The notes beneath the pieces are model-generated. The model was given only the letters and a program-made list of their open reading frames with translations, did no database searches and was not told the origin of the DNA. This document shows, piece by piece, positions 513 to 53,113 of a stretch of DNA of 64,000 nucleotides. This DNA is from Giesbergeria sp. (GTDB lineage Bacteria > Pseudomonadota > Gammaproteobacteria > Burkholderiales > Burkholderiaceae_C). Position 1 is the stretch's first letter. The number at the start of each line of letters is the position of its first letter. Location of the stretch: assembly GCA_017985015.1 (NCBI GenBank), contig JAGNYI010000013.1, positions 16,650-80,649 of the forward strand. The letters run 5' to 3'. Both the position numbers and the translations under genes were made by a program.

Positions 513-575
513 CAAAAAGGCCTCCAGCGCTTGTTTTGATTACCCATATAGCTATCTTTTTAATAGTATCTTCTC
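513..575 (-). repeat. Dispersed GATAGCT/AAGCGCT repeat, supplying pssA leader
   Basis: On the minus strand this reads AAAAGATAGCTATATGGG, then AAGCGCTGGAGGCC. It is an intergenic copy of the family seen about thirteen times in the window. It abuts the pssA ATG, and its GGAGG is at ribosome-binding distance. Confidence 0.75.
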
Positions 576-626
576 CGAGAACTCAGGCGGCAGTGTAGTC
601 GCGGCTTTCCAACCTCCCCCAACAAC

Positions 627-648
627 AAAGGCCACCGAAGTGGCCTTT
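627..648 (-). terminator. Rho-independent-type hairpin downstream of ilvC
   Basis: Perfect 9-bp stem AAAGGCCAC/GTGGCCTTT with a 4-nt loop, 27 nt past the ilvC stop. On the minus strand it runs into TTTGTTGTT. It probably ends the ilvBHC transcript. Confidence 0.75.
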
Positions 649-674
649 GCATGGCTCAGCGCACGGCTGGACGC

Positions 675-1826
<1,152 letters not shown>

Positions 1827-2318: not shown

Positions 2319-2400
2319 GAAGAGATTCCTCTTTTTGCTGCCCTCCGCGCACGCCGGTAAGCGCGCGCCTTGGCAGGCAATAGATTCGTCGAAAATACTA

Positions 2401-2460
2401 TCGTAAAGATAGCTGCTTGCGCTTATGGAATAAGCGCTGAAGGCCGATTTGGCTACAAAT
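2401..2460 (+). repeat. Dispersed GATAGCT/AAGCGCT repeat overlapping the ilvB 3' end
   Basis: One of the best copies: AGATAGCTGCTTGCGCTTAT, then AATAAGCGCTGAAGGCC. GCGCTTAT/ATAAGCGC forms a hairpin. Its right flank covers the ilvB stop codon at 2453-2455. Confidence 0.8.
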
Positions 2461-4240
2461 CCTCGGAACCGAGCAGCATTTCCGTGATGCCCTTGCCGGC
2501 CTGCACCATGGGGAAGACGTTTTCGGTGGGGTCGGTGCGGAAGTCCATGAACACCGTGCGGTCCTTGAGCTTGCGGGCTTCGCGCAGCGCGGGCTCCACG
2601 TCTTGCGGGCGCTCGATCAGCATGCCGACGTGGCCAAAGGCCTCGGCCAGCTTGACGAAGTTGGGCAGCGCGTCCATATAGCTGTGGCTGTAGCGGCCGG
2701 AATATTCAATCTCCTGCCACTGGCGCACCATGCCCAGATAGCGGTTGTTGAGCGACACCACCTTGATCGGCGTGTTGTACTGCAGGCAGGTCGAGAGCTC
2801 CTGGATGTTCATCTGCACCGAGCCTTCGCCGGTGATGCAGAACACCTCACTTTGCGGCTTGGCCAGCTTGATGCCCATGGCGTAGGGAATGCCCACGCCC
2901 ATGGTGCCCAGGCCGCCGGAATTGATCCAGCGGCGCGGCTCGTCGAAGCGGTAGTACTGCGCGGCCCACATCTGGTGCTGACCCACGTCGGACGTGATGT
3001 ACGTGTCGGCGTCCTTGGTCATGTTCCAGAGCGTCTCGACGACGTACTGTGGCTTGATGACGTCCGCGCTGCCCATGCTGTACTTGAGGCAGTCGCGGCT
3101 GCGCCAGCCTTCAATGGTGTCCCACCACGCGGCCAGCGCACCGGCATCGGCGCGGGTCGTGGTTTCGCGGATCATGGAGATGAGCTCGGTCAGTACGTCC
3201 TTGACATCGCCGACGATGGGAATGTCCACCTTGACGCGCTTGGAGATGCTCGACGGGTCGATATCGATGTGGATGATCTTGCGTTCGTTCTGCGCGAAGT
3301 GCTTGGGGTTGCCAATCACGCGGTCGTCAAAGCGCGCGCCCACCGCCAGCAGCACGTCGCAATGCTGCATGGCGTTGTTGGCCTCTACCGTGCCGTGCAT
3401 GCCGGGCATGCCGAGGAACTTGCGGTCGCTGGCCGGATAGGCGCCCAGGCCCATCAGCGTGTTGGTCACTGGGTAACCCAGCATGTCCACCAGGGTGCGC
3501 AGCTCGTTCGTCGCGTTGCCAAGCAACACGCCGCCACCGGTGTAAATGTAGGGGCGCTTGGCGGCCAGCAAGAGTTGCAGCGCCTTGCGAATTTGCCCGC
3601 CGTGGCCCCGCCGCACCGGGTTGTAGGAGCGCATTTCCACGCTTTGTGGATAGCCCTCGTACGGCGCTTTCTTGAACGAGACGTCCTTGGGGATATCGAC
3701 AACGACGGGCCCGGGCCGGCCCGAGCGGGCAATATGGAACGCCTTCTTCAAGGTGATCGCCAGGTCCCGCGGGTCCTTGACCAGGAAGTTGTGCTTGACG
3801 ATGGGGCGCGTGATGCCCACGGTGTCGCATTCCTGGAAGGCATCGAGGCCAATCGCTGCCGTAGGCACCTGGCCGGTGATGATCACCATGGGAATGCTGT
3901 CCATGTAGGCCGTGGCAATGCCGGTGACCGCATTGGTCACGCCGGGGCCGGAGGTCACAAGCGCGACGCCCACATCGCCCGTGGCGCGTGCGTAACCATC
4001 TGCCGCGTGGACAGCTGCCTGCTCGTGGCGCACCAGCACATGCTGCATGGTGTCTTGCTTGTACAGCGCGTCGTAGATGTAGAGAACAGCACCGCCGGGG
4101 TAGCCCCAGATGTACTTGACGCCTTCGGCCTGCAAGCCCTTGATGAGGATTTCTGCACCCATGAGTTCCTGGGTGGCAGGAGCAGCGCCCTGCTTTTGGG
4201 CGGCGGCTGCCGAGGCGAGTTCGGCTGATGAAATTTCCAT
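2453..4240 (-). CDS. ilvB: Acetolactate synthase large (catalytic) subunit
   Basis: Thiamine-diphosphate and FAD enzyme that condenses two pyruvates, or pyruvate with 2-oxobutyrate, in the first committed step of branched-chain amino-acid synthesis. The 595-residue protein has a short Ala/Gln-rich leader, then the TPP-enzyme N-domain (GAEILIKGLQAEGV; GYPGG; catalytic Glu in VRHEQAAVHAADGYAR), the central domain, and the C-terminal TPP-binding motif beginning GEGSVQMNIQELST. First gene of ilvBHC. I looked for an Ile/Leu/Val-rich attenuator peptide upstream and did not see one. The stop codon lies in a dispersed repeat. Confidence 0.97.
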   Translation of the reverse strand: MEISSAELASAAAAQKQGAAPATQELMGAEILIKGLQAEGVKYIWGYPGGAVLYIYDALYKQDTMQHVLVRHEQAAVHAADGYARATGDVGVALVTSGPGVTNAVTGIATAYMDSIPMVIITGQVPTAAIGLDAFQECDTVGITRPIVKHNFLVKDPRDLAITLKKAFHIARSGRPGPVVVDIPKDVSFKKAPYEGYPQSVEMRSYNPVRRGHGGQIRKALQLLLAAKRPYIYTGGGVLLGNATNELRTLVDMLGYPVTNTLMGLGAYPASDRKFLGMPGMHGTVEANNAMQHCDVLLAVGARFDDRVIGNPKHFAQNERKIIHIDIDPSSISKRVKVDIPIVGDVKDVLTELISMIRETTTRADAGALAAWWDTIEGWRSRDCLKYSMGSADVIKPQYVVETLWNMTKDADTYITSDVGQHQMWAAQYYRFDEPRRWINSGGLGTMGVGIPYAMGIKLAKPQSEVFCITGEGSVQMNIQELSTCLQYNTPIKVVSLNNRYLGMVRQWQEIEYSGRYSHSYMDALPNFVKLAEAFGHVGMLIERPQDVEPALREARKLKDRTVFMDFRTDPTENVFPMVQAGKGITEMLLGSEDL

Positions 4241-4426
4241 GATGAACCTTTGTGATTTTCTCTAACGAAAAACCTTGGGTGCTTCTTGCAAGGCCCTTGT
4301 GAGGCCCGCTCGAAACTTGAGGCCAAGGACATGGGCGGGATGATTGCCGCGCCGGACCGAGACCCGTTTGCTTTGATGATGCTGGGCGCGATTATCGCAC
4401 TGCAACAAATCTCCTGTGCGCCGGGA

Positions 4427-4454
4427 TTGAAAAAAACGTGGAAATGCAATAATC
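4427..4454 (+). promoter_or_regulatory. Candidate promoter for the sigma-factor operon
   Basis: TTGAAA followed 16 nt later by ATAATC, in an AT-rich pocket of otherwise GC-rich DNA, about 55 nt before the chosen start. Assigned by resemblance to a vegetative promoter only. Confidence 0.4.
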
Positions 4455-4510
4455 CGCGCCGCAGCCCGGCAGCGATTGGGCGCAACCCCTGCCTCCACCA
4501 CCTGCCCCTC

Positions 4511-8343: not shown

Positions 8344-9999
8344 TCAGGCGCGGAACTGATTGGTGATGGGGTAGCGCCAATCCTTGCCAAAGCTGCGCCG
8401 CGTGACGCGGATGCCTACCGGCGCCTGGCGGCGCTTGTATTCGTTGATCTTGATGAGACGCGTCACCCGTTCAACATCCGCGCGTTCGAAACCGGCTGCA
8501 ATGATGGACTCTATGGCTTCGTCATTTTCCATATAGCGCGCAATGATGGCGTCCAGCACCTCGTAGGGTGGCAGGCTGTCCTGGTCGGTCTGACCAGGGC
8601 GCAGCTCGGCGCTGGGTGGGCGCGTGATGATGCGCTCGGGGATCGGGTTGGCGCCGGTGTTGAACGGGTCGTTGGCATTGCGCCAGCGCGCCAGCGCGAA
8701 GACCTGCGTCTTGGGCACGTCCTTGATGGGCGCAAAGCCCCCTGCCATGTCGCCGTACAGCGTGCAATAACCCGTAGCCAGCTCGCTCTTGTTGCCCGTG
8801 GTCAGCACCAGGCTGCCAAACTTGTTCGACAGCGCCATCAACAGCGTGCCGCGAATGCGCGCCTGGAGGTTTTCTTCGGTCGTGTCCTCCGCCTTGCCGG
8901 CGAATTGCGGCGCGAGGGAGGCCTTGAAGGCTTCGAACGCGGGGCGGATGTCGATCTCTTCGTACGACACGCCGAGGCGCCCGGCCATGTCGCGCGCATC
9001 AATCCAGCTGATGTCGGCCGTGTAGGGCGACGGCATCATTACCGTGCGCACGCGGCCCTTGCCCAGCGCATCGACGGCCAGGGCCAACACCAGCGCCGAA
9101 TCGATGCCGCCCGAGAGGCCCAGCAGCACACCGGGGAAGCCATTTTTGCCGATGTAGTCGCGCACGCCCAGCACCAGCGCATGCCACAAGTCTGGCAGCA
9201 AGCCCGGCAGTGGGGCCACGTCTGCTTTAATTTTGATAGCTGCCTGCGCTTGCTCCACCTGCGCAAACACCAGTTTTTCTTCAAAAGCCGGGGCGCGGGC
9301 GACGACAGCGCCGTCCGCGTCCAGAGCAAACGAGCGCCCTTCGAAGACCACCTCGTCCTGCCCGCCCACCAGGTGTGCATAGACCAGCGGCAGGCCGGTT
9401 TCCTGCACCCGCGCGCGCATGGTCTCCTCACGCGTGCTGCTCTTGCCGCTGTGGAACGGCGAGGCGTTGATGACGGCGATGAGCTGGGCGCCCGCTGCCG
9501 CCACGTCCCGTGCCGGTGCTGTGTGCCAGGCGTCCTCACAAATCAGCAAGCCCACGCGCAGGCCGGCCACTTCGAACACGCAAGGCGCCTCGCCGGGCCG
9601 GAAGTAGCGCCGCTCGTCAAACACTTCGTAGTTGGGGAGCTCCCGCTTGGCATAGGTCTGCTCAATGCACCCGGCGCGCAGCACGCTGGCGGCGTTGAAA
9701 CAGGTGGCAAACGCGGCGGCTCCGCTGGCCCGCTGCGGGTGCCCCAGCACGATGACGAGGTCTTTCAGGGCCGCCGTCGCCTCGGCGATGCGTTTGACGG
9801 CATCATCACAGGCCGCGAGAAACGCTGGCCGCAGGAACAAATCCTCGGCGGCATAGCCACACAAGGCCAGTTCGGGCGTCAGCAGCAAGGCCGCGCCGCC
9901 GGCATGGGCCGCGTGCGCTGCATCGATGATCTTCTGCGCGTTGCCGCGCAGGTCACCTACAGTGAAATTGAGTTGCGCTATGCAAATGGAGAGCGTCAT
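8344..9999 (-). CDS. nadE: Glutamine-dependent NAD+ synthase
   Basis: Last step of NAD synthesis: ATP-dependent amidation of nicotinic acid adenine dinucleotide, using ammonia channelled from glutamine. The 551-residue two-domain protein has an N-terminal nitrilase-type glutaminase (TPELALCGY, Lys region YAKRELPNYEVFDE, ICEDAW with the catalytic Cys) and a C-terminal synthetase with the P-loop LGLSGGIDSALVLALAVDAL. ATG 9999 gives the usual MTLSICIAQLNFTVGDL start. The interdomain segment (about residues 248-259, AQAAIKIKA) is written by a half-copy of the dispersed repeat. glnB follows 33 bp downstream. Confidence 0.95.
   Translation of the reverse strand: MTLSICIAQLNFTVGDLRGNAQKIIDAAHAAHAGGAALLLTPELALCGYAAEDLFLRPAFLAACDDAVKRIAEATAALKDLVIVLGHPQRASGAAAFATCFNAASVLRAGCIEQTYAKRELPNYEVFDERRYFRPGEAPCVFEVAGLRVGLLICEDAWHTAPARDVAAAGAQLIAVINASPFHSGKSSTREETMRARVQETGLPLVYAHLVGGQDEVVFEGRSFALDADGAVVARAPAFEEKLVFAQVEQAQAAIKIKADVAPLPGLLPDLWHALVLGVRDYIGKNGFPGVLLGLSGGIDSALVLALAVDALGKGRVRTVMMPSPYTADISWIDARDMAGRLGVSYEEIDIRPAFEAFKASLAPQFAGKAEDTTEENLQARIRGTLLMALSNKFGSLVLTTGNKSELATGYCTLYGDMAGGFAPIKDVPKTQVFALARWRNANDPFNTGANPIPERIITRPPSAELRPGQTDQDSLPPYEVLDAIIARYMENDEAIESIIAAGFERADVERVTRLIKINEYKRRQAPVGIRVTRRSFGKDWRYPITNQFRA
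9224..9256 (+). repeat. Half-copy of the dispersed repeat inside nadE
   Basis: TTTTGATAGCTGCCTGCGCT matches the left half of the family. On the nadE strand it encodes QAQAAIKIKA, almost the same peptide as the hrpA copy (QAQAAIKTKA), in the same frame. Confidence 0.7.
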
Positions 10000-10088
10000 G
10001 GGGCCCAGAAGGTCGGACAAGAGCCAGCGGCAAACCATGCCGAGCACACGAGCATTCGCAATGAACGCGCGCATTGCCAAGGCCGTGC

Positions 10089-11315
10089 ATGGCTGAAAAA
10101 GCCATTATCACCCGCGTACACACCAGTCCGCTGGCGCTGGACGCAGCCGCTTGGAACGCTCTCCTGGCGCAACAGGCACACGCCACGCCCTTCATGCGCC
10201 ACGAGTACCTCGCGGCCCTGCACGCGAGCGGCAGTGCCGTGCCCGCCACTGGCTGGCACCCGCACTACGTCACGCTGGAGCAGGACGGCTGCCTGATCGC
10301 CGCTTGCCCGCTGTACCTGAAAGAGCATTCGTACGGCGAATACATATTCGACTGGGCCTGGGCGCGCGCCTACCAGGAGCACGGCCTCGCCTACTACCCC
10401 AAGGCCCTGGTTGCCGTGCCCTTCACGCCCGTCCCAGGCAGCCGGCTGCTGGCGCGCGATGAGGCTGCGCGCACGGCGCTGCTTCGCGCGGTGGTGGCTT
10501 GGTGCGAGGAGCAGTCCTTGTCTTCCTTGCACCTGCTCTTTGGCAGCGAAGCAGACATGGCGGCGTGCAAAAGTGTTGGGCTGATGCAGCGCACCACCGT
10601 GCAATTTCACTGGAAGAACCTTGCGCCGGAGGGAGGAAGGTTCCGCGATTTCGAGCATTTTCTCGGCGCCCTTACCCAGGACAAGCGCAAGAAAATTCGC
10701 CAGGAGCAGCGCCGCGTGCGGGACGCGGGCGTGCGCTTTCGTTGGGCGCACGGGTCGGACATTGCGGCTGCCGACTGGAATTTTTTCTACCGCTGCTACG
10801 AGCGCACCTATCTGGAACACGGCAACCCGCCCTACCTTAGCCGCGCCTTTTTTGAGCGCATGGCGCGTGACATGCCGGGCGCCTGGCTGCTGTTCATTGC
10901 CGAACGTGAAGGCGAAGCGATTGCTAGCAGTCTGATAGCTGTCAACGCATATCCATCAAGCGCTAGAGGCCAAAATGGCTTTACTTTTTCGCCACCAACA
11001 GCCTATGGCCGGTACTGGGGGGCGCTGGAGCGGGTGGACAGCCTGCACTTCGACGCCTGCTATTACCAGCCGCTGGCCTGGTGCATCGCGCACGGCTTTG
11101 AAACATTTGAGGGCGGTGCCCAGGGCGAGCACAAGATGGCCCGTGCGCTGATGCCAGTGGCCACGCACAGCGCCCATTGGCTGGCCCACCCCGCCTTCGC
11201 AGACGCCGTGGAGCACTTTCTGGAGCGTGAGGATGCTGGCATGGCGGCGTACGTTCAAGAACTCAAGGCGCACACACCCTTTCGCGTCGCAGCGCAGAGG
11301 GTGCCAAACCCCTGA
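10089..11315 (+). CDS. GNAT/FemAB-like N-acyltransferase family protein (DUF482-type)
   Basis: A 408-residue protein of the FemAB-like / peptidoglycan-recognition-type GNAT group (DUF482). Typical motifs are TPFMRHEYLAALHASGSA, GWHPHYVTLEQDG, the tract QDKRKKIRQEQRRVRD, YERTYLEHGNPPYL and, late, YGRYWGA with ACYYQPLAWCIAHGFETFEGGAQGEHK. Substrate unknown. ATG 10089 is preferred over TTG 10074. Residues 278-299, in the GNAT core between EGEAIAS and YGRYWGA, are encoded by a dispersed repeat. From memory, relatives have only a short loop there. The gene is divergent from nadE. Confidence 0.85.
   Translation: MAEKAIITRVHTSPLALDAAAWNALLAQQAHATPFMRHEYLAALHASGSAVPATGWHPHYVTLEQDGCLIAACPLYLKEHSYGEYIFDWAWARAYQEHGLAYYPKALVAVPFTPVPGSRLLARDEAARTALLRAVVAWCEEQSLSSLHLLFGSEADMAACKSVGLMQRTTVQFHWKNLAPEGGRFRDFEHFLGALTQDKRKKIRQEQRRVRDAGVRFRWAHGSDIAAADWNFFYRCYERTYLEHGNPPYLSRAFFERMARDMPGAWLLFIAEREGEAIASSLIAVNAYPSSARGQNGFTFSPPTAYGRYWGALERVDSLHFDACYYQPLAWCIAHGFETFEGGAQGEHKMARALMPVATHSAHWLAHPAFADAVEHFLEREDAGMAAYVQELKAHTPFRVAAQRVPNP
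10920..10985 (+). repeat. Dispersed repeat read in frame inside the GNAT gene
   Basis: CTGATAGCTGTCAACGC, then AAGCGCTAGAGGCCAAAAT: a near-complete copy oriented with the gene. It encodes about 22 residues (LIAVNAYPSSARGQNG and flanks) with no stop in the frame used. Confidence 0.8.
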
Positions 11316-19472: not shown

Positions 19473-19540
19473 TGTATTTTGCTATTAATTAGATAGCTGT
19501 AAACATATACCTATAAAGCGCTAGCAGCATTTTTTACCAC
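19473..19540 (+). repeat. Dispersed repeat between nsrR and a chemoreceptor gene
   Basis: TTAGATAGCTGTAAACATA, then TAAAGCGCTAGCAGCATTTT: an intergenic copy in an AT-rich gap between convergent genes. Confidence 0.7.
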
Positions 19541-19550
19541 TAAATCGCAT

Positions 19551-33422: not shown

Positions 33423-33523
33423 GGTGGCAACTTCGTAGAGAATCGCGAATTATCCCCGGCCCGCTCCATTTTCTGGACGACTCCCACCCAGCCTACCGCC
33501 GCTCTGCGGCCCCGCCCACGCGC

Positions 33524-34870
33524 ATGTCCACCGTCTTCAACTTCACTTTTGTGCCCTGGTTCCGCTCCGTGGCGCCCTACATCCACAAGTTTCGGCACCA
33601 GACCTTTGTCATCGGGCTGCCGGGCGAGGCCATTGCTGCGGGCAAGCTCTACAGCATTGCGCAGGACCTTGCCATGATCCAGGCGATGGGCGTCAAGATC
33701 GTTCTGGTGCACGGCTTTCGCCCGCAAGTGAACGAGCAGCTCGCCGCCAAGGGCCATGAGGGGCGCTACTCGCACGGCATCCGTATCACCGATTCGGTGG
33801 CGCTCGACAGTGCGCAGGAGGCCGCTGGGCAGTTGCGCTATGAGATCGAAGCCGCGTTCAGCCAGGGCCTGCCGAACACGCCCATGGCCGATTCCACGGT
33901 GCGGGTGATTTCGGGCAACTTCATTACGGCACGGCCGGTGGGCATCGTCGATGGGGTGGATTTCCAGCACTCTGGGCTGGTGCGCAAAGTGGACGTGGCG
34001 GGCATCCAGCGCTCGCTCGACATGGACGCACTGGTGCTCATCTCACCCTTTGGCTTCTCGCCCACGGGCGAGGCCTTCAACCTGAACATGGAGGAAGTCG
34101 CGACCTCGGTGGCCATCGCCCTCAAGGCCGACAAGCTGGTGTTCGTCTCCGAAGTGCCGGGCATATTGCAGAACCCCGAAGAACCCGCCACCGACGACAA
34201 CCCGATCGACACCGAACTGCCGCTCGCCCAGGCGCGCCAGCTGCTGGCGCGCATGCCCGCGAGCCAGCAACCGTCGGACACCGCGTTCTACCTGCAGCAC
34301 TGCGTGAAGGCCTGCCAGGGCGGTGTGGAGCGCAGCCACATCATTCCGTTTGCCGTGGACGGTGCGCTGCTGCTCGAGATCTACGTGCACGACGGCATCG
34401 GCACCATGATCGTAGACGAAAAGCTCGAAGAAGTGCGCGAAGCCACGGCGGACGACGTTGCCGGCATCCTGCAGCTGATCGAGCCGTTCGAGAAAGACGG
34501 CACGCTGGTCAAGCGCGACCGCACCGAGATCGAACGCGACGCCTCCAACTACACCATCGTCGAGCACGACGGCGTGATCTTTGGCTGCGCCGCGCTGTAC
34601 GCCTACCCCGAGGCACGCACCGCCGAAATGGCCGCCCTCACCGTCTCGCCGCAAAGCCAGGGCACCGGCGACGGTGAAAAGCTGCTGCGCCGCATCGAGC
34701 AGCGCGCGCGCCTGCTGGGGTTGGAGAGCATCTTCGTGCTCACGACGCGCACCATGCACTGGTTCCTGAAGCGCGGCTTCAAGCCGGTGGACCCCGAGTG
34801 GCTGCCCGAAGCGCGCAAGCGCAAGTACAACTGGGACCGGCGCAGCCAGGTTCTGGTGCGCAAACTTTAG
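33524..34870 (+). CDS. argA: Amino-acid N-acetyltransferase (N-acetylglutamate synthase)
   Basis: First step of arginine synthesis: acetyl-CoA plus glutamate to N-acetylglutamate. The 448-residue protein has an N-terminal amino-acid-kinase-like domain (KIVLVHGFRPQVNEQL, SGNFITARPVGIVDGVDFQ, DALVLISPFGFSPTGEAFNL), usually the arginine feedback site, and a C-terminal GNAT domain (EMAALTVSPQSQGTGDGEKL acetyl-CoA loop, FVLTTRTMHWFLKRGF). Length and order match classical ArgA. It ends just before a dispersed repeat. Confidence 0.95.
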   Translation: MSTVFNFTFVPWFRSVAPYIHKFRHQTFVIGLPGEAIAAGKLYSIAQDLAMIQAMGVKIVLVHGFRPQVNEQLAAKGHEGRYSHGIRITDSVALDSAQEAAGQLRYEIEAAFSQGLPNTPMADSTVRVISGNFITARPVGIVDGVDFQHSGLVRKVDVAGIQRSLDMDALVLISPFGFSPTGEAFNLNMEEVATSVAIALKADKLVFVSEVPGILQNPEEPATDDNPIDTELPLAQARQLLARMPASQQPSDTAFYLQHCVKACQGGVERSHIIPFAVDGALLLEIYVHDGIGTMIVDEKLEEVREATADDVAGILQLIEPFEKDGTLVKRDRTEIERDASNYTIVEHDGVIFGCAALYAYPEARTAEMAALTVSPQSQGTGDGEKLLRRIEQRARLLGLESIFVLTTRTMHWFLKRGFKPVDPEWLPEARKRKYNWDRRSQVLVRKL

Positions 34871-34871
34871 G

Positions 34872-34925
34872 CAAAAACAGCCTCCAACGCTTATTCAGCA
34901 AGCGTTTATAGCTATATTTTCAATA
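34872..34925 (-). repeat. Dispersed repeat at the 3' end of the HD-GYP gene
   Basis: On the minus strand AAAATATAGCTATAAACGC, then GAATAAGCGTTGGAGGC. It overlaps the last codons of the HD-GYP gene, and the TAG of the TAGCTAT core is that gene's stop. Confidence 0.75.
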
Positions 34926-36570
34926 GCGATTGCGCTTGCGCTGCCGTGACGAAGCCCGCCACGTCCACCGCGTCCATCTGCTCGGCATCCAGAAACCGCT
35001 CGGCGTAGCGCAGATAGACGCGCTCGCGCAGAAACACCTCGAACAGATCGGGGTCGATGTGGCCGCCGTGCTTCATGCGCTCCATGATGGCAACGGCCTG
35101 CGACAGCTTCATGCCGCTCTTGTAGGGGCGGTCAGCCGCCGTCAGGGCCTCGAAGATGTCGGCAATGCCCATCATGCGGGCCTGCACCGACATCTGATCG
35201 CGGGTGAGGCCGCGCGGGTAGCCCTTGCCGTCCATGCGTTCGTGGTGGCCGCCAGCGTACTCGGGCACCCTCTTGAGGTGCTGGGGCCAGGGCAAGGCTT
35301 CGAGCATTTTGATGGTGGCCACGATGTGGTAATTGATGGTGTCGCGCTCCGCCTGGGTCAGCGTGCCGGAGCGGATGGTGAGGTTCTCAATTTCCTCGGC
35401 GGTCAGAAACTCCGTCTGCACGCCGTCGACATTGCGCCACTGGCGCTGTGCAGACAGGCTGCGAACGCGTTGCTGATCGGCCGCCTGCATGGCCTCGACA
35501 CCGCGGTTGCAATGGCGCAAAAAGGCCCGGTCGTCGTCTATGGCCTGCATCTCCCGTTGCAGGCTGGCCAGGGCCACGGCCTCGGCGCCGGGGTCCACCG
35601 CCGGGCGCAAGGCGAGTTGGGCGCGCAGGGCGGCGAGTTCCGCGTCGCGCTTGGCCACCTCAAAGCGGGTATCGATGAGTCCGATGCGGTCGTAGAGTGT
35701 TTGCAGCTTGGTGGCCTTGTCCACCACGTGCACCGGCGTCGTGATCTTGCCGCAGTCGTGCAGCAGTCCGGCCATTTTCAGCTCGTAGCGGTCGCGATCG
35801 CTCATGTGGAAATCCGCGAGCGGTCCTGTGGTCGTGGCATCTGCCGCTTCGGCCAGCATCATGGTCAGCTCGGGCACGCGCTCGCAATGGCCCCCGGTGT
35901 AGGGCGATTTTTCGTCGATGGCGATATTGATCAGCTTGACGAAGGACTCAAACAAGCGCTCGAGTTGCGTGATGAGCAGCCGGTTGGACAGCGCGATCGC
36001 CGCCTGCGAGGCCAGCGATTCGGTCAGGCTCTGGTCGGCATTCGAAAAAGCCACCACCTTGCCTGTCGCAGGGTCGAGCGCATTGAGCAGTTGCAGCACC
36101 CCGATCAACTCGCCCTGGTGGTCCGTCATCGGCACCGTCAAAAACGATTGCGAGCGGTAGCCGGTGCGCTGGTCAAAGGCGCGCGTGCCAGAAAAGTCAA
36201 AACCTTCTTGCGCATACGCGTCGACGATGTTCACTGTGCGCCCGTGCAGCGCAGCGTGCGCGGCCACCAGCGCGTCATTGGGTGAACCGTCGGCGCGGCG
36301 CAGCGGCAACTCGGGAAGATCGATTTTCTGGCCCGTGGTGCCGCCCTGGCGAACGCCCAGCGAGTCGGTGCGCATGATCTCAAAGCGCAGCGCGCTGTGG
36401 TCTTCCGTCACGCTGTAGAGCGTGCCGCCGTCGGCGCCGGTCAGCGCTTTGGCTGCTTCAAGAATGTTCTCCAGCAGGCGCTCGATATTGCGCTCGCGGG
36501 ACAGCGCCGCCCCAATCCGGTTGAGTTGGTCCAATCGGGCGAAGAGGTTCATCGCAGACTGCTTTTCCAT
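34912..36570 (-). CDS. GAF and HD-GYP domain protein, putative cyclic-di-GMP phosphodiesterase
   Basis: A 552-residue signalling protein. The GAF domain (about 20-195) ends in GVLQLLNAL and QAAIALSNRLL. The HD-GYP domain follows with HCERV (228), the metal HD pair in LLHDCGK (271-272), HHERMDGKGYP (442-452) and ADIFEALTAADRPYKSGM. The HD and GYP parts are separated by a charged helical insert of roughly 100 residues (290-395), much longer than in canonical enzymes. Expected activity is hydrolysis of c-di-GMP, since all metal ligands are visible. The second of two tandem ATGs (36570) is preferred for its AGGGAG spacing. Confidence 0.9.
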   Translation of the reverse strand: MEKQSAMNLFARLDQLNRIGAALSRERNIERLLENILEAAKALTGADGGTLYSVTEDHSALRFEIMRTDSLGVRQGGTTGQKIDLPELPLRRADGSPNDALVAAHAALHGRTVNIVDAYAQEGFDFSGTRAFDQRTGYRSQSFLTVPMTDHQGELIGVLQLLNALDPATGKVVAFSNADQSLTESLASQAAIALSNRLLITQLERLFESFVKLINIAIDEKSPYTGGHCERVPELTMMLAEAADATTTGPLADFHMSDRDRYELKMAGLLHDCGKITTPVHVVDKATKLQTLYDRIGLIDTRFEVAKRDAELAALRAQLALRPAVDPGAEAVALASLQREMQAIDDDRAFLRHCNRGVEAMQAADQQRVRSLSAQRQWRNVDGVQTEFLTAEEIENLTIRSGTLTQAERDTINYHIVATIKMLEALPWPQHLKRVPEYAGGHHERMDGKGYPRGLTRDQMSVQARMMGIADIFEALTAADRPYKSGMKLSQAVAIMERMKHGGHIDPDLFEVFLRERVYLRYAERFLDAEQMDAVDVAGFVTAAQAQSLLKI

Positions 36571-37308: not shown

Positions 37309-37805
37309 CGCCGGCTGCGGGCCAGCAGCACCATCAGCACCAGCGCAAAACCCACAAAGCAGACGAAAGACCAGTTGGCAATCGAGCCGCCCAGGAAGGT
37401 CCAATCCACCTTCGCACAGTCGCCCGAGCCCCGGAAGATCATGGGAATGGCGCGGCTGAAAGAATAGTTCTCGATCATTCCGTAGAAGTCGCGCCCGCAC
37501 ATCGCGAACTCTGGCGGGTACCACTGCAGCCAGGTCTGGCGGGCCGCAGTGAAGGCACCGAAGCCACTGGCCAGCAAAGCCAGCACCGACCAGGAAATTA
37601 TCCAGCCTTTTCTGGCACTAGCGCTTGCCAGGCCTGTGCATATAGCTACCAAAATAAGAGCATAGCGCTGCACGATGCACATCGGACAAGGTTCCAGTCC
37701 CACCACGTGCTGCAGGTACAGCCCAAACGCCAGCATGCCAATGCAGGCCAGACACATCAGCGCCAGAATGCGGCGCGGGGCCGTGGTGAACCAGTCGAGA
37801 ATCAT
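37293..37805 (-). CDS. dsbB: Disulfide bond formation protein B
   Basis: Inner-membrane quinone reductase that reoxidises DsbA. The 170-residue protein has four membrane helices. Redox cysteines are Cys40-Pro-Met-Cys43 in the first periplasmic loop, and Cys103 and Cys130 in the second (FAMCGRDF; GSGDC). The quinone-site Arg47 follows the CxxC helix. Residues 49-67, the second membrane helix and following turn, coincide with a dispersed repeat. From memory the total length matches relatives, so the repeat has not obviously lengthened the protein. Confidence 0.94.
   Translation of the reverse strand: MILDWFTTAPRRILALMCLACIGMLAFGLYLQHVVGLEPCPMCIVQRYALILVAICTGLASASARKGWIISWSVLALLASGFGAFTAARQTWLQWYPPEFAMCGRDFYGMIENYSFSRAIPMIFRGSGDCAKVDWTFLGGSIANWSFVCFVGFALVLMVLLARSRRYVAA
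37606..37660 (-). repeat. Dispersed repeat inside dsbB
   Basis: On the minus strand TTATTTTGGTAGCTATATGC, then GGCAAGCGCTAGTGCCAG. It encodes LVAICTGLASASARKG in the gene's frame, the same frame as the GNAT copy. Confidence 0.7.
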
Positions 37806-37870
37806 CGAAACCCCAGAACGTCAAAAAAGCGGCGATCCGCCAAAGAGCGCCTTAGACCGACTTTGCGATC

Positions 37871-44695: not shown

Positions 44696-44762
44696 TCATT
44701 CAAATTTTGATAAAAATAGGGCTCTAGCGCTTATCCCATAAGCGTTAGCAGCTATCAATTCA
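44696..44762 (-). repeat. Dispersed repeat between azoR and the kinase gene
   Basis: On the minus strand TGAATTGATAGCTGCTAACG, then GATAAGCGCTAGAGCCC: a full copy in the gap between convergent genes. It reaches the TGA stop of the kinase gene at 44760-44762. Confidence 0.8.
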
Positions 44763-46076
44763 GGACTTTTCTGGCGGCGCCGCCACCAGATCCCATTCCG
44801 CCACCTGCTCGTTCGTCGCCACCAGGCGGCCCACCAGCAGTTTGATGAAGGCCTTGTCAAAGCACGATTGCAGCGTGTCCGACGCGCCGCGCAGCGCCGG
44901 GTTGGGCACCTTGAGCACCAGCACCTCCGACTCGGAGACCGCCGTGGCGGTGCGGATGGGGGCGTCGGGCCGCAAGAACGTCATTTCGCCAAAGCTGACG
45001 CCGCGCTCCAGGGTGCACAGCTGCCAGCCCTGGCGCGTGATGTTCACCTGCCCTTCGATGAGGATGCAGAACGAATCGCCCGGCGTGCCCTCGCGCATCA
45101 GCACGGTGCCGCGCGGCACGCGCCGCCAATGGCCCAGGCGCATCAGCTCCCACAGGGCCACATCGTGAAACTCGGCAAAGAACGGCAAGGCCCGCAGGCG
45201 TGCGAAACGCTCGGTCTCCGTGTCCTGCGACTTCTGGCGCGGCAGGCTGCGCGAGAGCGCGAGCAAGGCGTCTGCCCAGTCGGACCAACGCGCATAGCGG
45301 TCCTGCGGGGCCTTGGCCAGTGCGCGCAGCACAAAGGCGTCAACTTGCGCCGGCAGCGACGCGCGCAGCAGGCTGGGTGCAGCGGCTGCTTCGTGGCTGA
45401 TGCGGTAGAGCGTGGCGAAATCGGTTTCGCCATCAAACGGCCGGCGCCCGGTGAGCAGTTCGTACACCACCACGCCGAGCGAAAACATATCGCTGTGGTG
45501 GGTCAGCGTTTCTTCGCGCACCTGCTCGGGCGACATGTACGAAGGCGAGCCCACCAGCCCCGCGAGTTGCGTGGCCTCGCTCTGCGTCGAGAGGGCCGCG
45601 CCAAAATCCACCAGCTTGACTTCGCCATCGTCGGCCAACAGCAGGTTGGCGGGTTTGATGTCGCGGTGCACCAGGCCCTGGCGCTCGGCGTATTCGAGGG
45701 CGTGGCCGCATTTGAAGGCGATATCAAGCACCTGCGCCACGGGCAGCAGGGTATCGGCACTGGCATGGTCAGACAGCGGCCGGCCGCTCAGGTATTCAAA
45801 GACGAGGTAAGGCGGCGTTGCGGATTCGTCGGCGTCCAGCAGCCGCACGATGTTGGGGTGGCGCAGGCGTGCGGCCAGCGCCGCCTCGCTCTGCAACTGC
45901 CGGCGGTGGCGCGCCGCCTGCGCCGGTTCGGCCAGCAGGTGCGCGTGCATTTGCTTGACCGCCACCTTGCGCCCGCGCAGGCCGTCGAGCCCCAGGTACA
46001 CCACGCCACTGGCGCCGCGCCCCAGCTCGCGTTCGATGCGGTATTTGCCGATGGTGGCGGGCACCCGGTCTGCCAT
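44760..46076 (-). CDS. Serine/threonine protein kinase with C-terminal cyclic-nucleotide-binding domain
   Basis: A 438-residue Hanks-type kinase. The glycine loop is ELGRGASGVVYLG, with catalytic Lys41, HRDIKPANLL (137-146), DFG (157-159) and PSYMSPEQVREE. All catalytic residues are present. A Crp/cNMP-binding-type domain follows (about 305-425: PRGTVLMREGTPGDSFCILI, GVSFGEMTFLRPDAPIRTAT). No transmembrane helix is seen, so this is probably a soluble kinase gated by a nucleotide-like ligand. Its start is 2 bp past the sbcB stop on the same strand. Substrate unknown. Confidence 0.9.
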   Translation of the reverse strand: MADRVPATIGKYRIERELGRGASGVVYLGLDGLRGRKVAVKQMHAHLLAEPAQAARHRRQLQSEAALAARLRHPNIVRLLDADESATPPYLVFEYLSGRPLSDHASADTLLPVAQVLDIAFKCGHALEYAERQGLVHRDIKPANLLLADDGEVKLVDFGAALSTQSEATQLAGLVGSPSYMSPEQVREETLTHHSDMFSLGVVVYELLTGRRPFDGETDFATLYRISHEAAAAPSLLRASLPAQVDAFVLRALAKAPQDRYARWSDWADALLALSRSLPRQKSQDTETERFARLRALPFFAEFHDVALWELMRLGHWRRVPRGTVLMREGTPGDSFCILIEGQVNITRQGWQLCTLERGVSFGEMTFLRPDAPIRTATAVSESEVLVLKVPNPALRGASDTLQSCFDKAFIKLLVGRLVATNEQVAEWDLVAAPPEKS

Positions 46077-48209: not shown

Positions 48210-48228
48210 GTCGGGCTCCTTTTGCAAT

Positions 48229-48275
48229 GGGTAGCTATCAATGATAGCTACCCTTCTCGCTTGCGCAAGAGGCTG
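48229..48275 (+). repeat. Dispersed-repeat copy forming a perfect palindrome upstream of vapB
   Basis: GGGTAGCTATC, AAT, GATAGCTACCC is an 11-bp perfect inverted repeat (48229-48253), followed by CGCTTGCGCAAGAGGC, the right part of the dispersed family. The palindrome is 20 bp upstream of the vapB ATG, where VapB operators usually lie. Confidence 0.65.
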
Positions 48276-49135: not shown

Positions 49136-49279
49136 TCGGGACGCGATCAAAAGGCAGATCCAGACGCCCGATGGGCGACATGCCTGGGTCGAATCGCGCT
49201 TCTCAAACGGCTCCTTCAACAGATCGCGGCACCGCTTGGCAGTCACGTCCAGATCGGCCTTGCTGGAGCCCCAACATAC

Positions 49280-52200
49280 TCACCCCCGCCACGCCACGCC
49301 GCCATCCACCGCCACCGCCTGCGCGCGGCCCAGGGCTTCGAGGGTTTGCAGGAGCGTGGGCAAGCTCTTCTTCCAGGGGCCTCGGCCTTTGAAGTGTGCT
49401 TCCAGGGCGGGCAGCGTGAGCGGCGCGGGGCTGCGGGCCAGGGCTTCGGCCACGGCGCGCACCTGCTCGGGGAGGGTGGCGGGCCAGGGGTGCTGGCTCG
49501 CGGGTGCGGGTGCGGTGCTTGCAGGCGCTAAATTTTGATCAAAATCGGCCTCTAGCGCTTGCTGCACCTGCGTTGGTAGCTCTTGTTTTTGTAGTATTTT
49601 TACCGGATTCTGAAACTCGGGCCGCAGCCAGCGCACGCGGCCCTGGGCTTCCTCCTGGGCGCGCTCGGTGTTGAGCTGCACCAGGTGCACAAGGATGTCG
49701 TCGGTGCTGGCGCCCGCCGGCAAGCCGTACGCGGCGAGCACGGCGGCGTCCAGCTCGTCGTGCAGTTCGCGCAGCACGCCCACCAGGCCCTGGGTGTGGA
49801 TGAGCTTCTCTTTGGCCGTCAGCGCCCTGCCGTCTCGCAGTGCGGTCAGCACGTTGTAGAGGCCGGTGAGCGTGAGGGCCGTGCTGGCTGGGGCGGGGGG
49901 TGTTGTGGCGGCTGTTGTGGCGGGCGTTGTGGCGGGTAGGGCCGGGGCAGGCGGGGACTGCGGGGGGCTCATACGCGCTTCGCTTGCCAAATCGCCCCCC
50001 GCAGTCCCCACCTGCCCCAGCACGCGCTTGCGGTGGGCGTCGATCTGCTCGGCGAGCTGGGCGATGCGTTCGCGCAGGGCGGGAGTCAGACCGGTGTCTT
50101 CGTCGGGGAAAGGGAAGGTTTCGAAGCAGCGGGATTTGTTGTAGCGCGGGTCGTTGCCAACGCCCAGCCGCGAACCAGTTGCCAGCGCCCATTCGGTGTG
50201 CAGTTGGCTCGAAAGAATGCCCAAAACAAAAGCATCATTGACGGCGACGGCAATCAGCATGTTGTCCGGGAGGATGCTGGCGTCTAGAAACTGGAAGGTG
50301 CGGTGTTTGGCGGTTTCGACGGTGGCGATGTAGCGCGGCAAACCTGCAAGCGCGGGACGCAGTTCACGACGTGGTTCCCCAAAAATCCACCAGTTGTCTC
50401 GGTACGTCGCCCGATTGTTCTGGTCGCGCTCAGGCTTGACCCGCTCCAGCAGCCATTGGTAAACGTGCGGCGCTTGCTGGAGCAATGCCTCGGCTTCCCA
50501 GCCGAAGGCATCAATCACCTTCACGCCGCGTGGCTTGTCGGTGAGGTCGCGCCCATTGCGGTAGTCGCGCAGCAACTGCGAACCGCCTGGTCCGCCCTCC
50601 AGCGGCTGGCCCTCCGGCAAGAGCTTTGCGGCTTCGTCCGGCGTGACGATAAACCCTGCGCCATGGAGCTTCACGCCCGGCGACGAAACGCCCGCCATCG
50701 CGCGCAGTGGTACCGCCGCCGCCACATTCGCCCCCACGCTCAAATCCGCATGCACCAGCCCCCGCCGCTCCTGCACCGTGACCGCCACCTCGCCAAAATC
50801 ACAAGTCCGCTCCCCCGTCACGCGCAGCACCGCGCCCTCGCCCGCCCCAGGCGCGAGCACCGTCATGGCGATCCGAACGGCAGCGCCGTTGGCACTGTCC
50901 ACCCAAGGATGGTCAGGAATCGCAAAACAAAGGTGCGTAGACCCCCAAACCAGCCCAGCGGACTTCCCAGCCTTCGCATCCACACCGCCCGCCCCAGCGT
51001 CGATGGTGGGCGTGCCAGCGGCCGATTTGTTGATGAGGCCGCTGGCTCGCCCGCCATCGGCGCCCTCCACCGCACCTCCCGGCAAGCCAGCGACAAACGA
51101 ACCCGACAACGCCGCCTGCACCACCCGCCGGTTGAAGGTCTGCCGCAAGCTGTTCGTCGTAATCAGCCCCATGCGCCGCGCACGCCCGCACGCCACCTGC
51201 GCGGCGGCATGGTGCCACCAGAACATCACAAAATCCGCGCTCTCAGGCACCTCAGGCCACGCGCCGCGCAGCGCCTCGACATAGCCATTGCCCAACGCAG
51301 CGCGCATGCTGGCCGCACCAATGAACGGCGGGTTCCCCACAATGAAATCCGCCTGCGGCCACGCGGCCTGCCTCGCGCCCAGGTAGCGCCACTGCGGCAC
51401 CTGCGCGGCTTCGTCGGGCACGGGCTCGCCGGTGACGGGGTGCGTTTTGAAAGTGCGGCCATCCCAGCGGGTGAGCAACTGGCCGGCTTTGTAGTACGCG
51501 GGCTCTTGCGAATCCCAGGCGAGCACGGCGTCGCGGCATTCGATGTTGCCGTAGTTGTGCACGACGGGCTCGGCGACGCTGTTGTGGCCGCGGGTGCGGA
51601 TGTGCCATTGCAGGTAGCCGATCCACAGCACGAGTTCGGCCAGGGCGGCGGCGCGTTCGTTCAGCTCGATGCCGCGCAGTTGCTGCAGGGTGACGGTTTC
51701 GCCCTCGAAACCGAGCTGGTCTTGGGTGTGGCCCAAGGCTTCGAGCTGGTTGACGACTTCGCCCTCCAGGCGCTTCAAGTGTTCCAGCGTGACGTACAAA
51801 AAGTTGGCACTGCCACAAGCCGGGTCGAGCACGCGGGTGGTGCAGAGCTGGTGGTGGAACTTTTTGACCTCGGCGCGGGCGTCCATCAGCTTGGCGTCAC
51901 GCGCCTTGCCTTCAAGCTCGGCCGCTTCGTGCGCCAGCACCAGTGCGGCGGCCTGGGCGTTGGCCCAGTCTGCGCGCAGGGGCTCGATGACGGTGGGCAG
52001 CACCAGCCGCTCGACATAGGCGCGCGGCGTGTAGTGGGCACCCAGGGCGTGGCGCTCGGTGGGGTCGAGGGCGCGTTCGAGCAGCGTGCCGAAGATGGCG
52101 GGCTCCACCTCGCGCCAGTTGGCCTTGGCAGCTTCAATCAAGAGATCAATCTGCGATGGCGTGAGCAGCAGGCTGTAGTCGGCCTGGCCGGCGCCCTTGA

Positions 52201-53113
52201 AGAGCTTGCCGTTGAAGTGCAGCACAGGTTTGGCCAGGGCGGCACTGAAACCGCCGGTGTCCATATCGGTCCACAGAATGCGTAGCATCTGCTGCAGCGT
52301 GGCCGGGTCGTCCCGGTGGGTTTGCAGCAGGCCCTGAAAGCTGCCTTTGGGGAGCAGCTCGACGTCTTCGGCAAACATGCAGAACAGGCAGCGGGTGAGA
52401 TAGGCTGCTACTGTTTCAGGAGCTACTAACGGTTTACTGGCGTGCGCTAGAGGCACATTTTGCTTGTATTTTTCACCCCCACCCTCCAGCGAGCGCGCCA
52501 GCTCGGCCAGCAGCGCGGCCACGCCCCGCGTGACCTGGGCGCTGATGCGCGCGGGGTTGAGGCTGTCGGGGTCCACCCAAATGCGGCGCAGGCGCTCTTG
52601 CACCTCGGGTTTGGCTAGGTCGGCAAGGGCCAGGCGGTGGCTGCGCGGGTCGGGGAAAGGCGTGTAGGTGGCGCCGCTCTTGCTGAATTCGGCGTACACC
52701 TCGATGACGGTGCCGACATCGACCACCAGCACAAACGGCGGGCGGCCCTCGGCGGCGGGCAGCGCGCGGGCGTAGGCCTCGCCCTGGCTGCGGGCACGCA
52801 GCAGGCCGTCGTCAAAGCCCTTGGTGTGGGCGCCGGCCTTGAGCTTCTTGGCTTCGAGCACAAAGTGACCGCGCCGGTAGCAGTCGATGCGCCCGGCGCT
52901 GGTGCTGCCGTTGCCGTGGCTGAAGGTGACCGGGCGCTCGAACATGTAGTCCTGCTCGGCCGTGGCGTGGGGCTTGGCCACACCAAGCAGCTCGCACAGC
53001 TCCATCACGAAACTTTGCGCGGTGGCCAGTTCGCTGGCGGTGGTGCCGGCCCAGCGGGCAATGAAAGCCTGGGTGGCGGCAGAGTCGACCGGGGCGAGGG
53101 GCGTCAAGGGCAT
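49280..53113 (-). CDS. MmeI-like Type IIL restriction-modification enzyme (single-chain)
   Basis: One large protein of 1277 residues combining nuclease, methyltransferase and target recognition. The N-terminal PD-ExK nuclease signature is D77-x9-E87-x-K89, spaced as in MmeI. A helical region and the N6-adenine methyltransferase follow, with motif I DPACGSANF (about 428-436; Ala where most have Gly) and motif IV NPPF (about 591). The recognition domain and C-terminus come last. Two dispersed repeats are read in frame (residues 213-240 and 1171-1196), and a Thr/Pro/Ala linker comes from a 12-bp tandem repeat. No separate R, M or S gene is nearby. ATG 53113 (MPLTPLAPVDSAATQAF). Confidence 0.85.
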   Translation of the reverse strand: MPLTPLAPVDSAATQAFIARWAGTTASELATAQSFVMELCELLGVAKPHATAEQDYMFERPVTFSHGNGSTSAGRIDCYRRGHFVLEAKKLKAGAHTKGFDDGLLRARSQGEAYARALPAAEGRPPFVLVVDVGTVIEVYAEFSKSGATYTPFPDPRSHRLALADLAKPEVQERLRRIWVDPDSLNPARISAQVTRGVAALLAELARSLEGGGEKYKQNVPLAHASKPLVAPETVAAYLTRCLFCMFAEDVELLPKGSFQGLLQTHRDDPATLQQMLRILWTDMDTGGFSAALAKPVLHFNGKLFKGAGQADYSLLLTPSQIDLLIEAAKANWREVEPAIFGTLLERALDPTERHALGAHYTPRAYVERLVLPTVIEPLRADWANAQAAALVLAHEAAELEGKARDAKLMDARAEVKKFHHQLCTTRVLDPACGSANFLYVTLEHLKRLEGEVVNQLEALGHTQDQLGFEGETVTLQQLRGIELNERAAALAELVLWIGYLQWHIRTRGHNSVAEPVVHNYGNIECRDAVLAWDSQEPAYYKAGQLLTRWDGRTFKTHPVTGEPVPDEAAQVPQWRYLGARQAAWPQADFIVGNPPFIGAASMRAALGNGYVEALRGAWPEVPESADFVMFWWHHAAAQVACGRARRMGLITTNSLRQTFNRRVVQAALSGSFVAGLPGGAVEGADGGRASGLINKSAAGTPTIDAGAGGVDAKAGKSAGLVWGSTHLCFAIPDHPWVDSANGAAVRIAMTVLAPGAGEGAVLRVTGERTCDFGEVAVTVQERRGLVHADLSVGANVAAAVPLRAMAGVSSPGVKLHGAGFIVTPDEAAKLLPEGQPLEGGPGGSQLLRDYRNGRDLTDKPRGVKVIDAFGWEAEALLQQAPHVYQWLLERVKPERDQNNRATYRDNWWIFGEPRRELRPALAGLPRYIATVETAKHRTFQFLDASILPDNMLIAVAVNDAFVLGILSSQLHTEWALATGSRLGVGNDPRYNKSRCFETFPFPDEDTGLTPALRERIAQLAEQIDAHRKRVLGQVGTAGGDLASEARMSPPQSPPAPALPATTPATTAATTPPAPASTALTLTGLYNVLTALRDGRALTAKEKLIHTQGLVGVLRELHDELDAAVLAAYGLPAGASTDDILVHLVQLNTERAQEEAQGRVRWLRPEFQNPVKILQKQELPTQVQQALEADFDQNLAPASTAPAPASQHPWPATLPEQVRAVAEALARSPAPLTLPALEAHFKGRGPWKKSLPTLLQTLEALGRAQAVAVDGGVAWRG
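49527..49603 (-). repeat. Dispersed repeat in the C-terminal part of the restriction enzyme gene
   Basis: On the minus strand CAAGAGCTACCAACGCAGG, then CAAGCGCTAGAGGCCGATTT. It encodes about 26 residues around LQKQELPTQVQQALEADF in a frame different from the GNAT/dsbB copies. Confidence 0.75.
49902..49937. repeat. Three 12-bp tandem repeats in the restriction enzyme linker
   Basis: Three near-identical 12-mers of the form GTTGTGGCGGGC. They encode the Ala-Thr-Thr-Pro-type linker. The unit is a multiple of three, so copy changes would alter linker length, not reading frame. Confidence 0.75.
52396..52477 (+). repeat. Dispersed repeat in the N-terminal part of the restriction enzyme gene
   Basis: AGGAGCTACTAACGG, then GTGCGCTAGAGGCACATTTT, and TTGTATTTTTC. 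Read antisense, it encodes residues 213-240 around KYKQNVPLAHASKPLVAPE, just before the conserved FCMFAEDVELLP block. Confidence 0.7.

What the first reader, a model, noticed from the sequence alone, without database searches (positions are those of the whole stretch)
513..52477. A 50-80 bp dispersed repeat family with about thirteen copies, six of them read inside genes
Copies share GATAGCT, a variable middle, then (AT)AAGCGCTAGAGGCC and often AAAAT. The best form a hairpin GCGCTTAT/ATAAGCGC. Positions: 513, 2401, 9224, 10920, 19473, 21436, 30262, 34872, 37606, 44696, 48229, 49527 and 52396. Both orientations occur. Six coding copies remain open in the host gene's frame, using at least three different frames of the element. 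This is reminiscent of Rickettsia palindromic elements, which add peptides to proteins. No transposase is nearby, so the element must be mobilised in trans or spread by recombination.
Basis: partly seen in the sequence, partly recalled or inferred. Interest (0 to 1): 0.75.

Follow-up and report, generated by a model that had tools for sequence, protein, structure and literature searches.

The report
Long uptake-signal-like motif in Comamonadaceae
Well over a hundred copies of one 69-base DNA word lie scattered in the genome of this bacterium and of many relatives; inside genes they mostly seem to have been written over existing sequence rather than inserted, and they may be labels that help these bacteria recognise their own kind of DNA when taking it up.

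Summary
The repeat family is real: 12 of 13 listed places match a 72-column profile; the exact core occurs 80 times in the own genome against 0 in the reversed control. The Rickettsia-palindromic-element reading is not supported. In-gene copies rarely look like 23-aa insertions: of 57 alignments with element-free congeners (30 hosts), 24 show no length change and 12 differ by 1-4 aa; against two outgroup genomes 22 of 26 well-flanked alignments lie within 10 aa, though hosts are usually longer. Stem pairs show no convincing covariation in 258 copies, while conserved columns are held between species (93% against 73%). Copies are spaced more evenly than chance, lack strand bias, avoid divergent gene pairs, and reach 10 or more matches in 40 of 150 family genomes but none in 78 outside it. 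This resembles DNA uptake sequences, yet the motif is far longer (about 69 bp, 63 bits). Acidovorax temperans, reported to transform only with same-species DNA, carries at least 150. Best reading: a sequence-recognised, in-place motif, most likely an uptake signal; uptake itself is untested.

The parts
509..569 (-). copy 1, intergenic
   Evidence: 35.2 bits, E 7e-9; present at the same place in G012, G007, G022, G004, not scored in G015, where a degenerate form is visible
2394..2462 (+). copy 2, intergenic, next to an ilvH leader RNA (2323-2390, minus strand)
   Evidence: 59.6 bits; RF02993 match
9223..9286 (+). copy 3, inside nadE (gene on minus strand, ORF 8344-10104), linker between amidase and synthetase parts
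   Evidence: 32.1 bits; NF010588 NAD+ synthase; length change 0 and +1 aa against G002 and G005
10933..10988 (+). copy 4, inside a FemAB-like gene (ORF 10065-11315, plus strand)
   Evidence: 38.0 bits; PF04339; this host is among the longer ones (-15 aa against G002 for the G007 copy)
19479..19546 (+). copy 5, intergenic
   Evidence: 36.9 bits
21436..21492 (+). copy 6, weak
   Evidence: 14.7 bits, E 0.018; both half-motifs score above the reversed control here
30267..30333 (+). copy 7, inside hrpA (ORF 29391-33449, minus strand)
   Evidence: 59.2 bits; TIGR01967 HrpA
34861..34930 (-). copy 8, intergenic, close after a stop codon
   Evidence: 51.1 bits; alignment
37605..37663 (-). copy 9, inside dsbB (ORF 37293-37820, minus strand)
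   Evidence: 29.5 bits; segment gapless in 25 of 25 congeners
44701..44765 (-). copy 10, intergenic
   Evidence: 62.6 bits, best in the window
49530..49597 (-). copy 11, inside an MmeI-like restriction-modification gene (ORF 49280-53350, minus strand)
   Evidence: 45.5 bits; PF20473, PF20464, PF20465, PF20466
52406..52472 (+). copy 12, inside the same MmeI-like gene, between MmeI_N and the helicase spacer
   Evidence: 39.8 bits; domain borders; -14 and -16 aa against two G005 relatives

Best explanation
The family is a long, sequence-recognised DNA motif: about 69 bp, fixed spacing, conserved GC-containing blocks separated by A/T tracts. It arises and is kept mainly by substitution of existing sequence, not by insertion of an element. 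The force that keeps it is most likely biased uptake of DNA carrying the motif during type-IV-pilus natural transformation, so that recombination keeps restoring it (molecular drive), as for the uptake sequences of Haemophilus and Neisseria. Shown: the motif, its column-specific conservation, near length-neutral presence in many genes, even spacing and no strand bias in the genome tested, abundance in one family only. Inferred: recognition by a protein. Inferred and untested: that the recogniser is the DNA-uptake machinery.
For: In-place origin: 30 in-gene hosts, 57 alignments with G002/G005 (no element score at E<=10 in any orthologue), length change 0 in 24, 1-4 aa in 12, 5-10 in 11, 11-15 in 6, 16 or more in 4. 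The dsbB and nadE segments carry scored elements in the five syntenic congeners (dsbB 16-29 bits, nadE 22-32 bits) and by eye ordinary GC-rich codons in G002, G005 and G008, with no 23-aa gap. Recognition at sequence level: none of 26 tested pairs covaries convincingly (best z 2.7); information content per column predicts identity between G000 and G007 orthologues (Spearman 0.70, p 6.5e-12; intergenic copies 565/609 at IC>=1 against 291/399 at IC<0.4). 53 of 53 in-gene copies beat 1000 synonymous recodings (copies were chosen by score, so partly circular). Uptake-sequence hallmarks: spacing CV 0.61-0.72 against 0.96-1.04 simulated in non-coding DNA of G007 (4 segments, P 0.000, 0.052, 0.002, 0.009); 47 plus and 45 minus in one 580-kb segment; strong consensus (core sites anchored on GCG with 0/1/2 mismatches: 26/29/38 against 0/0/3 reversed). 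33 of 37 own copies with an orthologous site keep the element in G007. Family: 58 of 150 genomes have a match, 40 of them (35 genera) 10 or more; 0 of 78 genomes of other families. A. temperans carries at least 150 matches and is reported to be transformed only by same-species DNA; type-IV-pilus-dependent, sequence-specific uptake is reported for V. eiseniae (passages).
Against: A 63-bit, 69-bp recognition site is several times longer than the uptake sequences in the papers seen. Against outgroup families the host segment is longer in 24 of 26 alignments, 4 of 26 by 16-20 aa, and two of the six alignments dropped for poor flanks show -25 and -27, so insertions accompany the motif at some sites and a true insertion at a few is possible. 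G002/G005 may have lost an ancestral motif, which weakens the congener comparison. At motif-mismatch positions the host base equals the orthologue's base in 75/170, no more than at matched positions (292/622), and mismatch codons are less conserved than match codons, against a simple 'constraint spared these bases' prediction. Several stem columns are nearly invariant and cannot show covariation, and with G-U pairs on the minus strand some stem pairs hold in most copies (4-20 in 242, 26-44 in 236 of 258), so an RNA of that strand is not strictly excluded. Mean identity of whole elements (0.860) is no higher than of flanks (0.877). ComEC is present in 40 of 40 genomes with and without the motif. 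Density (one per 6-8 kb) is lower than the roughly one per kb of known uptake sequences.
Confidence: 0.5

Rival explanations
1. A binding site for a chromosome-organising or nucleoid protein (regularly spaced, kept by selection), unrelated to DNA uptake.
For: Column-specific constraint, even spacing, A/T tracts in which neighbouring columns 55-57 switch together (they lead the mutual-information list; TTT or AAA by inspection of copies), avoidance of divergent gene pairs (3 of 162 against 245 of 1179).
Against: No strand bias in the 580-kb segment examined, so not a polarity signal; no candidate protein identified; hundreds of 63-bit sites is unusual for such proteins (recalled, no call).
Confidence: 0.25
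2. An old non-autonomous insertion element (MITE, REP or Rickettsia-palindromic-element like) that inserted in the family ancestor and was later trimmed.
For: Fixed length with few partial copies (half-motif hits outside full copies: 18 left and 18 right, against 338 and 340 overlapping full copies); host loops are longer than in other families in 24 of 26 alignments; a few sites differ by about 50-70 bp between relatives (G022 55998, G015 59912).
Against: No clean empty site with a target duplication was found: the three G000/G007 differences inspected are not clean. 22 of 26 outgroup alignments differ by 10 aa or less; dsbB and nadE have no such gap; the RAYT gene of the own genome is not flanked by the element; no convincing covariation in the stems.
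Confidence: 0.17
3. A bidirectional transcription terminator or 3'-end processing element.
For: Convergent gene pairs 45 of 162 against 107 of 1179 at baseline, divergent 3 of 162 against 245 of 1179; palindromic centre.
Against: In-gene copies (53 of 318); no convincing stem covariation; no T-run directly after the main stem in the consensus; 3'-end placement is also expected if the motif is merely tolerated there.
Confidence: 0.06
4. Templated overwriting: a copy of the motif replaces an equal length of target in one event (gene conversion by a single-stranded copy).
For: Near length-neutral copies with strong consensus; some neisserial uptake sequences are also argued to arise by recombination rather than point mutation (PMC2397512, abstract and passages).
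Against: No donor or enzyme known; by eye the dsbB copy matches in two blocks and keeps the middle residues of the element-free orthologues.
Confidence: 0.07

Closest known systems
Uptake signal sequence (USS) of Pasteurellaceae
   Same: Conserved core with A/T tracts, no orientation bias, more even spacing than chance, strong consensus, in coding and non-coding DNA, arises by substitution and not by insertion (PMC1626085, passages and section 7).
   Different: USS core 9 bp and two A/T segments, about one per kb, 65% in genes; here about 69 bp, 63 bits, one per 6-8 kb, mostly outside genes. Uptake bias is shown for USS and untested here.
DNA uptake sequence (DUS) of Neisseriaceae
   Same: Abundant dispersed motif, no orientation bias, regular spacing; some copies are thought to arise by recombination (PMC1626085 and PMC2397512, passages).
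   Different: A 10-bp core without flanking motifs; other family.
Rickettsia palindromic elements
   Same: Many copies, some open in gene frames (PMC10969869, passages).
   Different: Those are about 150-bp integrated elements that add a peptide; here a 23-aa insertion is not seen in most hosts.
Beta-proteobacterial repeat element, BRE (Hot et al. 2011)
   Same: Short dispersed repeat in some Comamonadaceae, some copies in coding sequence (PMC3110155, section 14 read).
   Different: BRE: 75-91 bp and 69% GC in Bordetella, sometimes tandem, also in Azoarcus. Here 40% GC, dispersed, 0 of 78 genomes outside the family. The BRE letters were not seen, so identity is not strictly excluded.

Membership tests
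DNA uptake sequence (USS/DUS) | Copies arise in pre-existing sequence, not by insertion | tested here: met
   57 congener alignments, 36 within 4 aa; 22 of 26 outgroup alignments within 10 aa, with a bias to longer hosts and no loop-matched control. Met for most hosts, not for every one.
DNA uptake sequence (USS/DUS) | Strong over-representation with tight consensus | tested here: met
   80 exact cores against 0; mismatch spectrum
DNA uptake sequence (USS/DUS) | No strand bias and more even spacing than random | tested here: met
   47/45 in one segment; CV below the simulated mean in 4 of 4 segments, P<0.01 in 3 of 4, all of one genome
DNA uptake sequence (USS/DUS) | Short core (9-11 bp in the passages seen) | tested here: not met
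   about 69 columns carry information, 62.9 bits in all
DNA uptake sequence (USS/DUS) | Presence on DNA raises uptake or transformation | not testable with these tools
   needs an experiment
DNA uptake sequence (USS/DUS) | Rare on recently acquired DNA | not tested
   two copies lie in an MmeI-like gene that may be accessory
Rickettsia palindromic element | In-frame insertion that lengthens the protein | tested here: not met
   not seen in most hosts; a few hosts are 16-22 aa longer
Rickettsia palindromic element | Palindromic structure conserved | tested here: not met
   no convincing covariation in 258 copies; several columns too invariant to tell
REP/REPIN with RAYT | RAYT gene flanked by the repeat | tested here: not met
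   own RAYT-like gene G000:C55:45276-45605 lies more than 4 kb from the nearest copy; of the 11 PF01797 sequences scanned only the G015 locus (L194) holds a partial match
MITE | Terminal inverted repeats and target duplications at empty sites | tested here: inconclusive
   no terminal inverted repeat is evident in the consensus; no clean empty site was found among the few examined
BRE | 75-91 bp, GC-rich, also in Alcaligenaceae and Rhodocyclaceae | tested here: not met

The most novel reading that the evidence does not exclude
A DNA uptake signal of unprecedented length (about 69 bp, 63 bits) used across Comamonadaceae, a further bacterial family with a self-DNA label beside Pasteurellaceae and Neisseriaceae, read by an uptake complex that must contact or bend DNA over some seven helical turns.
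Probability: 0.42. Interest if true: 0.93.

Novelty: new variant of a known kind. Interest (0 to 1): 0.8.

Why it matters
Self-DNA labels for transformation are described for two families in the papers seen. If this is another, it predicts which DNA dozens of environmental genera can exchange, gives a molecular candidate for the sequence-specific uptake reported in Verminephrobacter and Acidovorax temperans, offers a new test of how a pilus machine reads DNA, and explains why ordinary genes carry runs of rare A/T-rich codons. Even if the recogniser is another protein, a 69-bp motif imposed on coding and non-coding DNA in some 35 genera (those with 10 or more matches) is a striking genome-wide constraint.

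Tried and rejected
Rickettsia-like insertion: not supported for most hosts by length comparison. RNA or DNA hairpin element: no convincing covariation, with the minus-strand G-U caveat told above. RAYT-driven REP: rejected in the own genome. BRE: unlikely. Rfam at gathering scores: one unrelated hit in the window. Plasmids: two plasmids, of Diaphorobacter and Comamonas, carry a copy; the other 204 of 206 records are enterobacterial, and the 18 of them listed match the query's flank only. ComEC presence: uninformative. Single-event against stepwise origin: the mosaic test went against my simple prediction. The outgroup gap test has no loop-matched control; 6 of its 32 alignments were dropped for flanks below 30% identity, with changes -9, -12, -25, -27, 0 and +11. 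Failed script parts: the profile scoring printed nothing; the last part stopped with an error and was redone another way. A direct comparison of the S. hankyongi loci with the fetched G007 stretches found no overlap.

Literature: ten searches, of which 54 and 71 were on other elements; no paper listed was seen to describe this motif. Subscription papers and preprints were not held and supplements could not be read.
Full report
WHAT WAS CHECKED. The window lies in G000:C102 of a 3.37-Mb draft genome. Its congener G007 appears to be the assembly of Simplicispira hankyongi NY-02: motif positions of G007 and of the genome behind locus L255, titled S. hankyongi NY-02 (G256), coincide at six places that I compared on contigs C1 and C13. 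S. hankyongi is in Comamonadaceae. The exact core AAGCGCTAGAGGCC occurs 80 times in the own genome and 0 times for the reversed control; 23 of 25 congeners have at least one exact core. Iterated nhmmer models gave a fixed-length, about 69-bp motif (72 columns modelled) with 119 distinct copies at E<1e-3 in 860,226 own bases and none in reversed sequence at E<=1; at E<0.01 there are 122, and 198 in 1,280,000 bases of G007. In the window 12 of the 13 listed places are members (21436 weakly); 48229 is not.

ANATOMY. Consensus of non-genic copies: AATTGCTATTAATTTGATAGCTGCTAGCGCTTACCGGATAAGCGCTAGAGGCCAATTTTACTTAAAATTTTG. GC is 40% in a 64% GC genome and total information is 62.9 bits. Three potential stems exist, but in 258 copies none of 26 tested pairs covaries convincingly (largest z 2.7), and pairs such as 4-20 and 7-17 are Watson-Crick in only 137 and 138 of 258. 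Some stem columns are too invariant to tell, and minus-strand G-U pairing would keep some pairs in most copies (4-20 in 242). The strongest coupled columns are neighbours, first of all 55-57. The motif therefore looks read as sequence rather than as structure.

CONSERVATION. Of 121 own copies tested, 37 have an orthologous site in the 1.28 Mb of G007; 33 keep the element, 30 of them with no length change beyond 5 bp. In 28 aligned pairs, information content predicts conservation (Spearman 0.70); in the 21 intergenic pairs, columns with IC>=1 are 92.8% identical and columns below 0.4 are 72.9% identical. The mean identity of whole elements (0.860) is no higher than that of their flanks, which include coding DNA (0.877). 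A decaying dead element would not be expected to show the column pattern (inference).

IN GENES. Of 318 copies with enough flank, 53 lie in an open coding frame (16 of 121 own, 37 of 197 G007), using frames -0 (27), +1 (15), +2 (5), -2 (5) and +0 (1); openness was part of the definition, and the test missed dsbB. An earlier classification left 11 of 118 own copies in same-frame contexts with stops, which may be gene ends. From the 53, 36 distinct hosts passed limits on score, length and flanks and were searched in G002 and G005, which hold no exact core. Thirty hosts gave 57 alignments; no orthologue had an element score; length change was 0 in 24, 1-4 aa in 12, 5-10 in 11, 11-15 in 6 and 16 or more in 4, the largest 22. 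A plain insertion would cost 23-24 aa. The dsbB segment is gapless in 25 of 25 congeners; the five syntenic ones score 16-29 bits there, while G002, G005 and G008 show ordinary codons by eye. Because G002 and G005 might be losers of an ancestral motif, 19 hosts were also sought in two genomes of other families: 32 alignments of 16 hosts, 26 (13 hosts) with both flanks at least 30% identical, length differences -20 to +1, 22 within 10 aa, 24 negative; the six dropped rows are -27, -25, -12, -9, 0 and +11. So plain insertion is not the rule, but host loops tend to be some residues longer and no loop-matched control was made. Lengths of matched stretch and profile: DsbB 159 against 158, NAD+ synthase 550 against 541; OTC 125 against 129, RlmD-like 114 against 117, ComEC 154 against 154, MiaA 144 against 138, TruB_N 96 against 90, RibD_C 136 against 125, but MutS_III 141 against 112 and FemAB-like 383 against 364.

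PLACEMENT. Non-genic copies of 25 bits or more with both neighbours resolved: 114 tandem, 45 convergent, 3 divergent of 162 (the number unresolved was not printed); sampled non-coding positions without element: 827, 107, 245 of 1179; within tandem pairs 56 lie on the gene strand and 58 on the other. Spacing in G007 has a lower CV than random placement in non-coding DNA in 4 of 4 segments (0.67, 0.72, 0.61, 0.71 against 1.04, 0.96, 0.99, 1.00; P 0.000, 0.052, 0.002, 0.009). Strands show no bias (47/45).

DISTRIBUTION. A sequence-only model (R1, 44 copies) matched 58 of 150 family genomes, own included, and 51 of 126 genera. It matched 0 of 78 genomes of other families in the order and 0 in one further family member; both searches used filters that lose weak matches.

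WHAT IT WORKS LIKE. The same gap test was published for Haemophilus uptake sequences: 24% (115 of 474) of alignments gapped, concluding that USSs arise by substitution (PMC1626085, section 7 read). That paper also gives no orientation bias, more regular spacing, A/T segments and an anomalously strong consensus (passages). PMC1939737 argues for gradual molecular drive (passages); PMC2397512 argues that some neisserial copies arise by recombination (abstract and passages). PMC4212676 reports natural transformation in Verminephrobacter eiseniae and in Acidovorax temperans and A. facilis, type-IV-pilus dependence and sequence-specific uptake in V. eiseniae, and that A. temperans was transformed only by same-species DNA (passages); the passages seen name no sequence. 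That the DSM and ATCC strains of A. temperans are the same type strain is recalled.

VERDICT. Observation confirmed; insertion interpretation not supported for most hosts. Best reading: an in-place, protein-recognised motif, most likely an uptake signal (0.5). The length is unlike known uptake sequences, so membership is not claimed.

Noticed in passing
window 2323-2390 (minus strand): An ilvH leader RNA (RF02993, 87 bits) ends 4 bases from the repeat copy at 2394-2462.
   Followed up: no
window 48229-48253: A perfect inverted repeat GGGTAGCTATCA/TGATAGCTACCC that resembles the first block of the motif but is not a full member.
   Followed up: partly
window 49280-53350: An MmeI-like restriction-modification gene carries two copies of the motif, although such genes are often accessory.
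   Followed up: no
G000:C55:45276-45605: A RAYT-like gene (PF01797, 250-aa frame); 21 of 26 genomes of the genus have a PF01797 match in a frame of 234-373 aa. Its flanks hold other short palindromes, GGGGTCAGACCCC upstream and an imperfect form downstream.
   Followed up: partly
G028:C1:1836740-1837544: A motif-bearing genome whose comEC match is split over three frames, a possible recent loss of competence or a sequencing error.
   Followed up: no
NZ_CP049911.1:107816-107876: A Diaphorobacter plasmid carries a copy inside cobN (83.6% over 61 bases).
   Followed up: no
window 10890-10919: The query flank before copy 4 matches 25-30 bases of enterobacterial plasmids at 93-100%, one annotated as an IS66 transposase; probably chance.
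   Followed up: no
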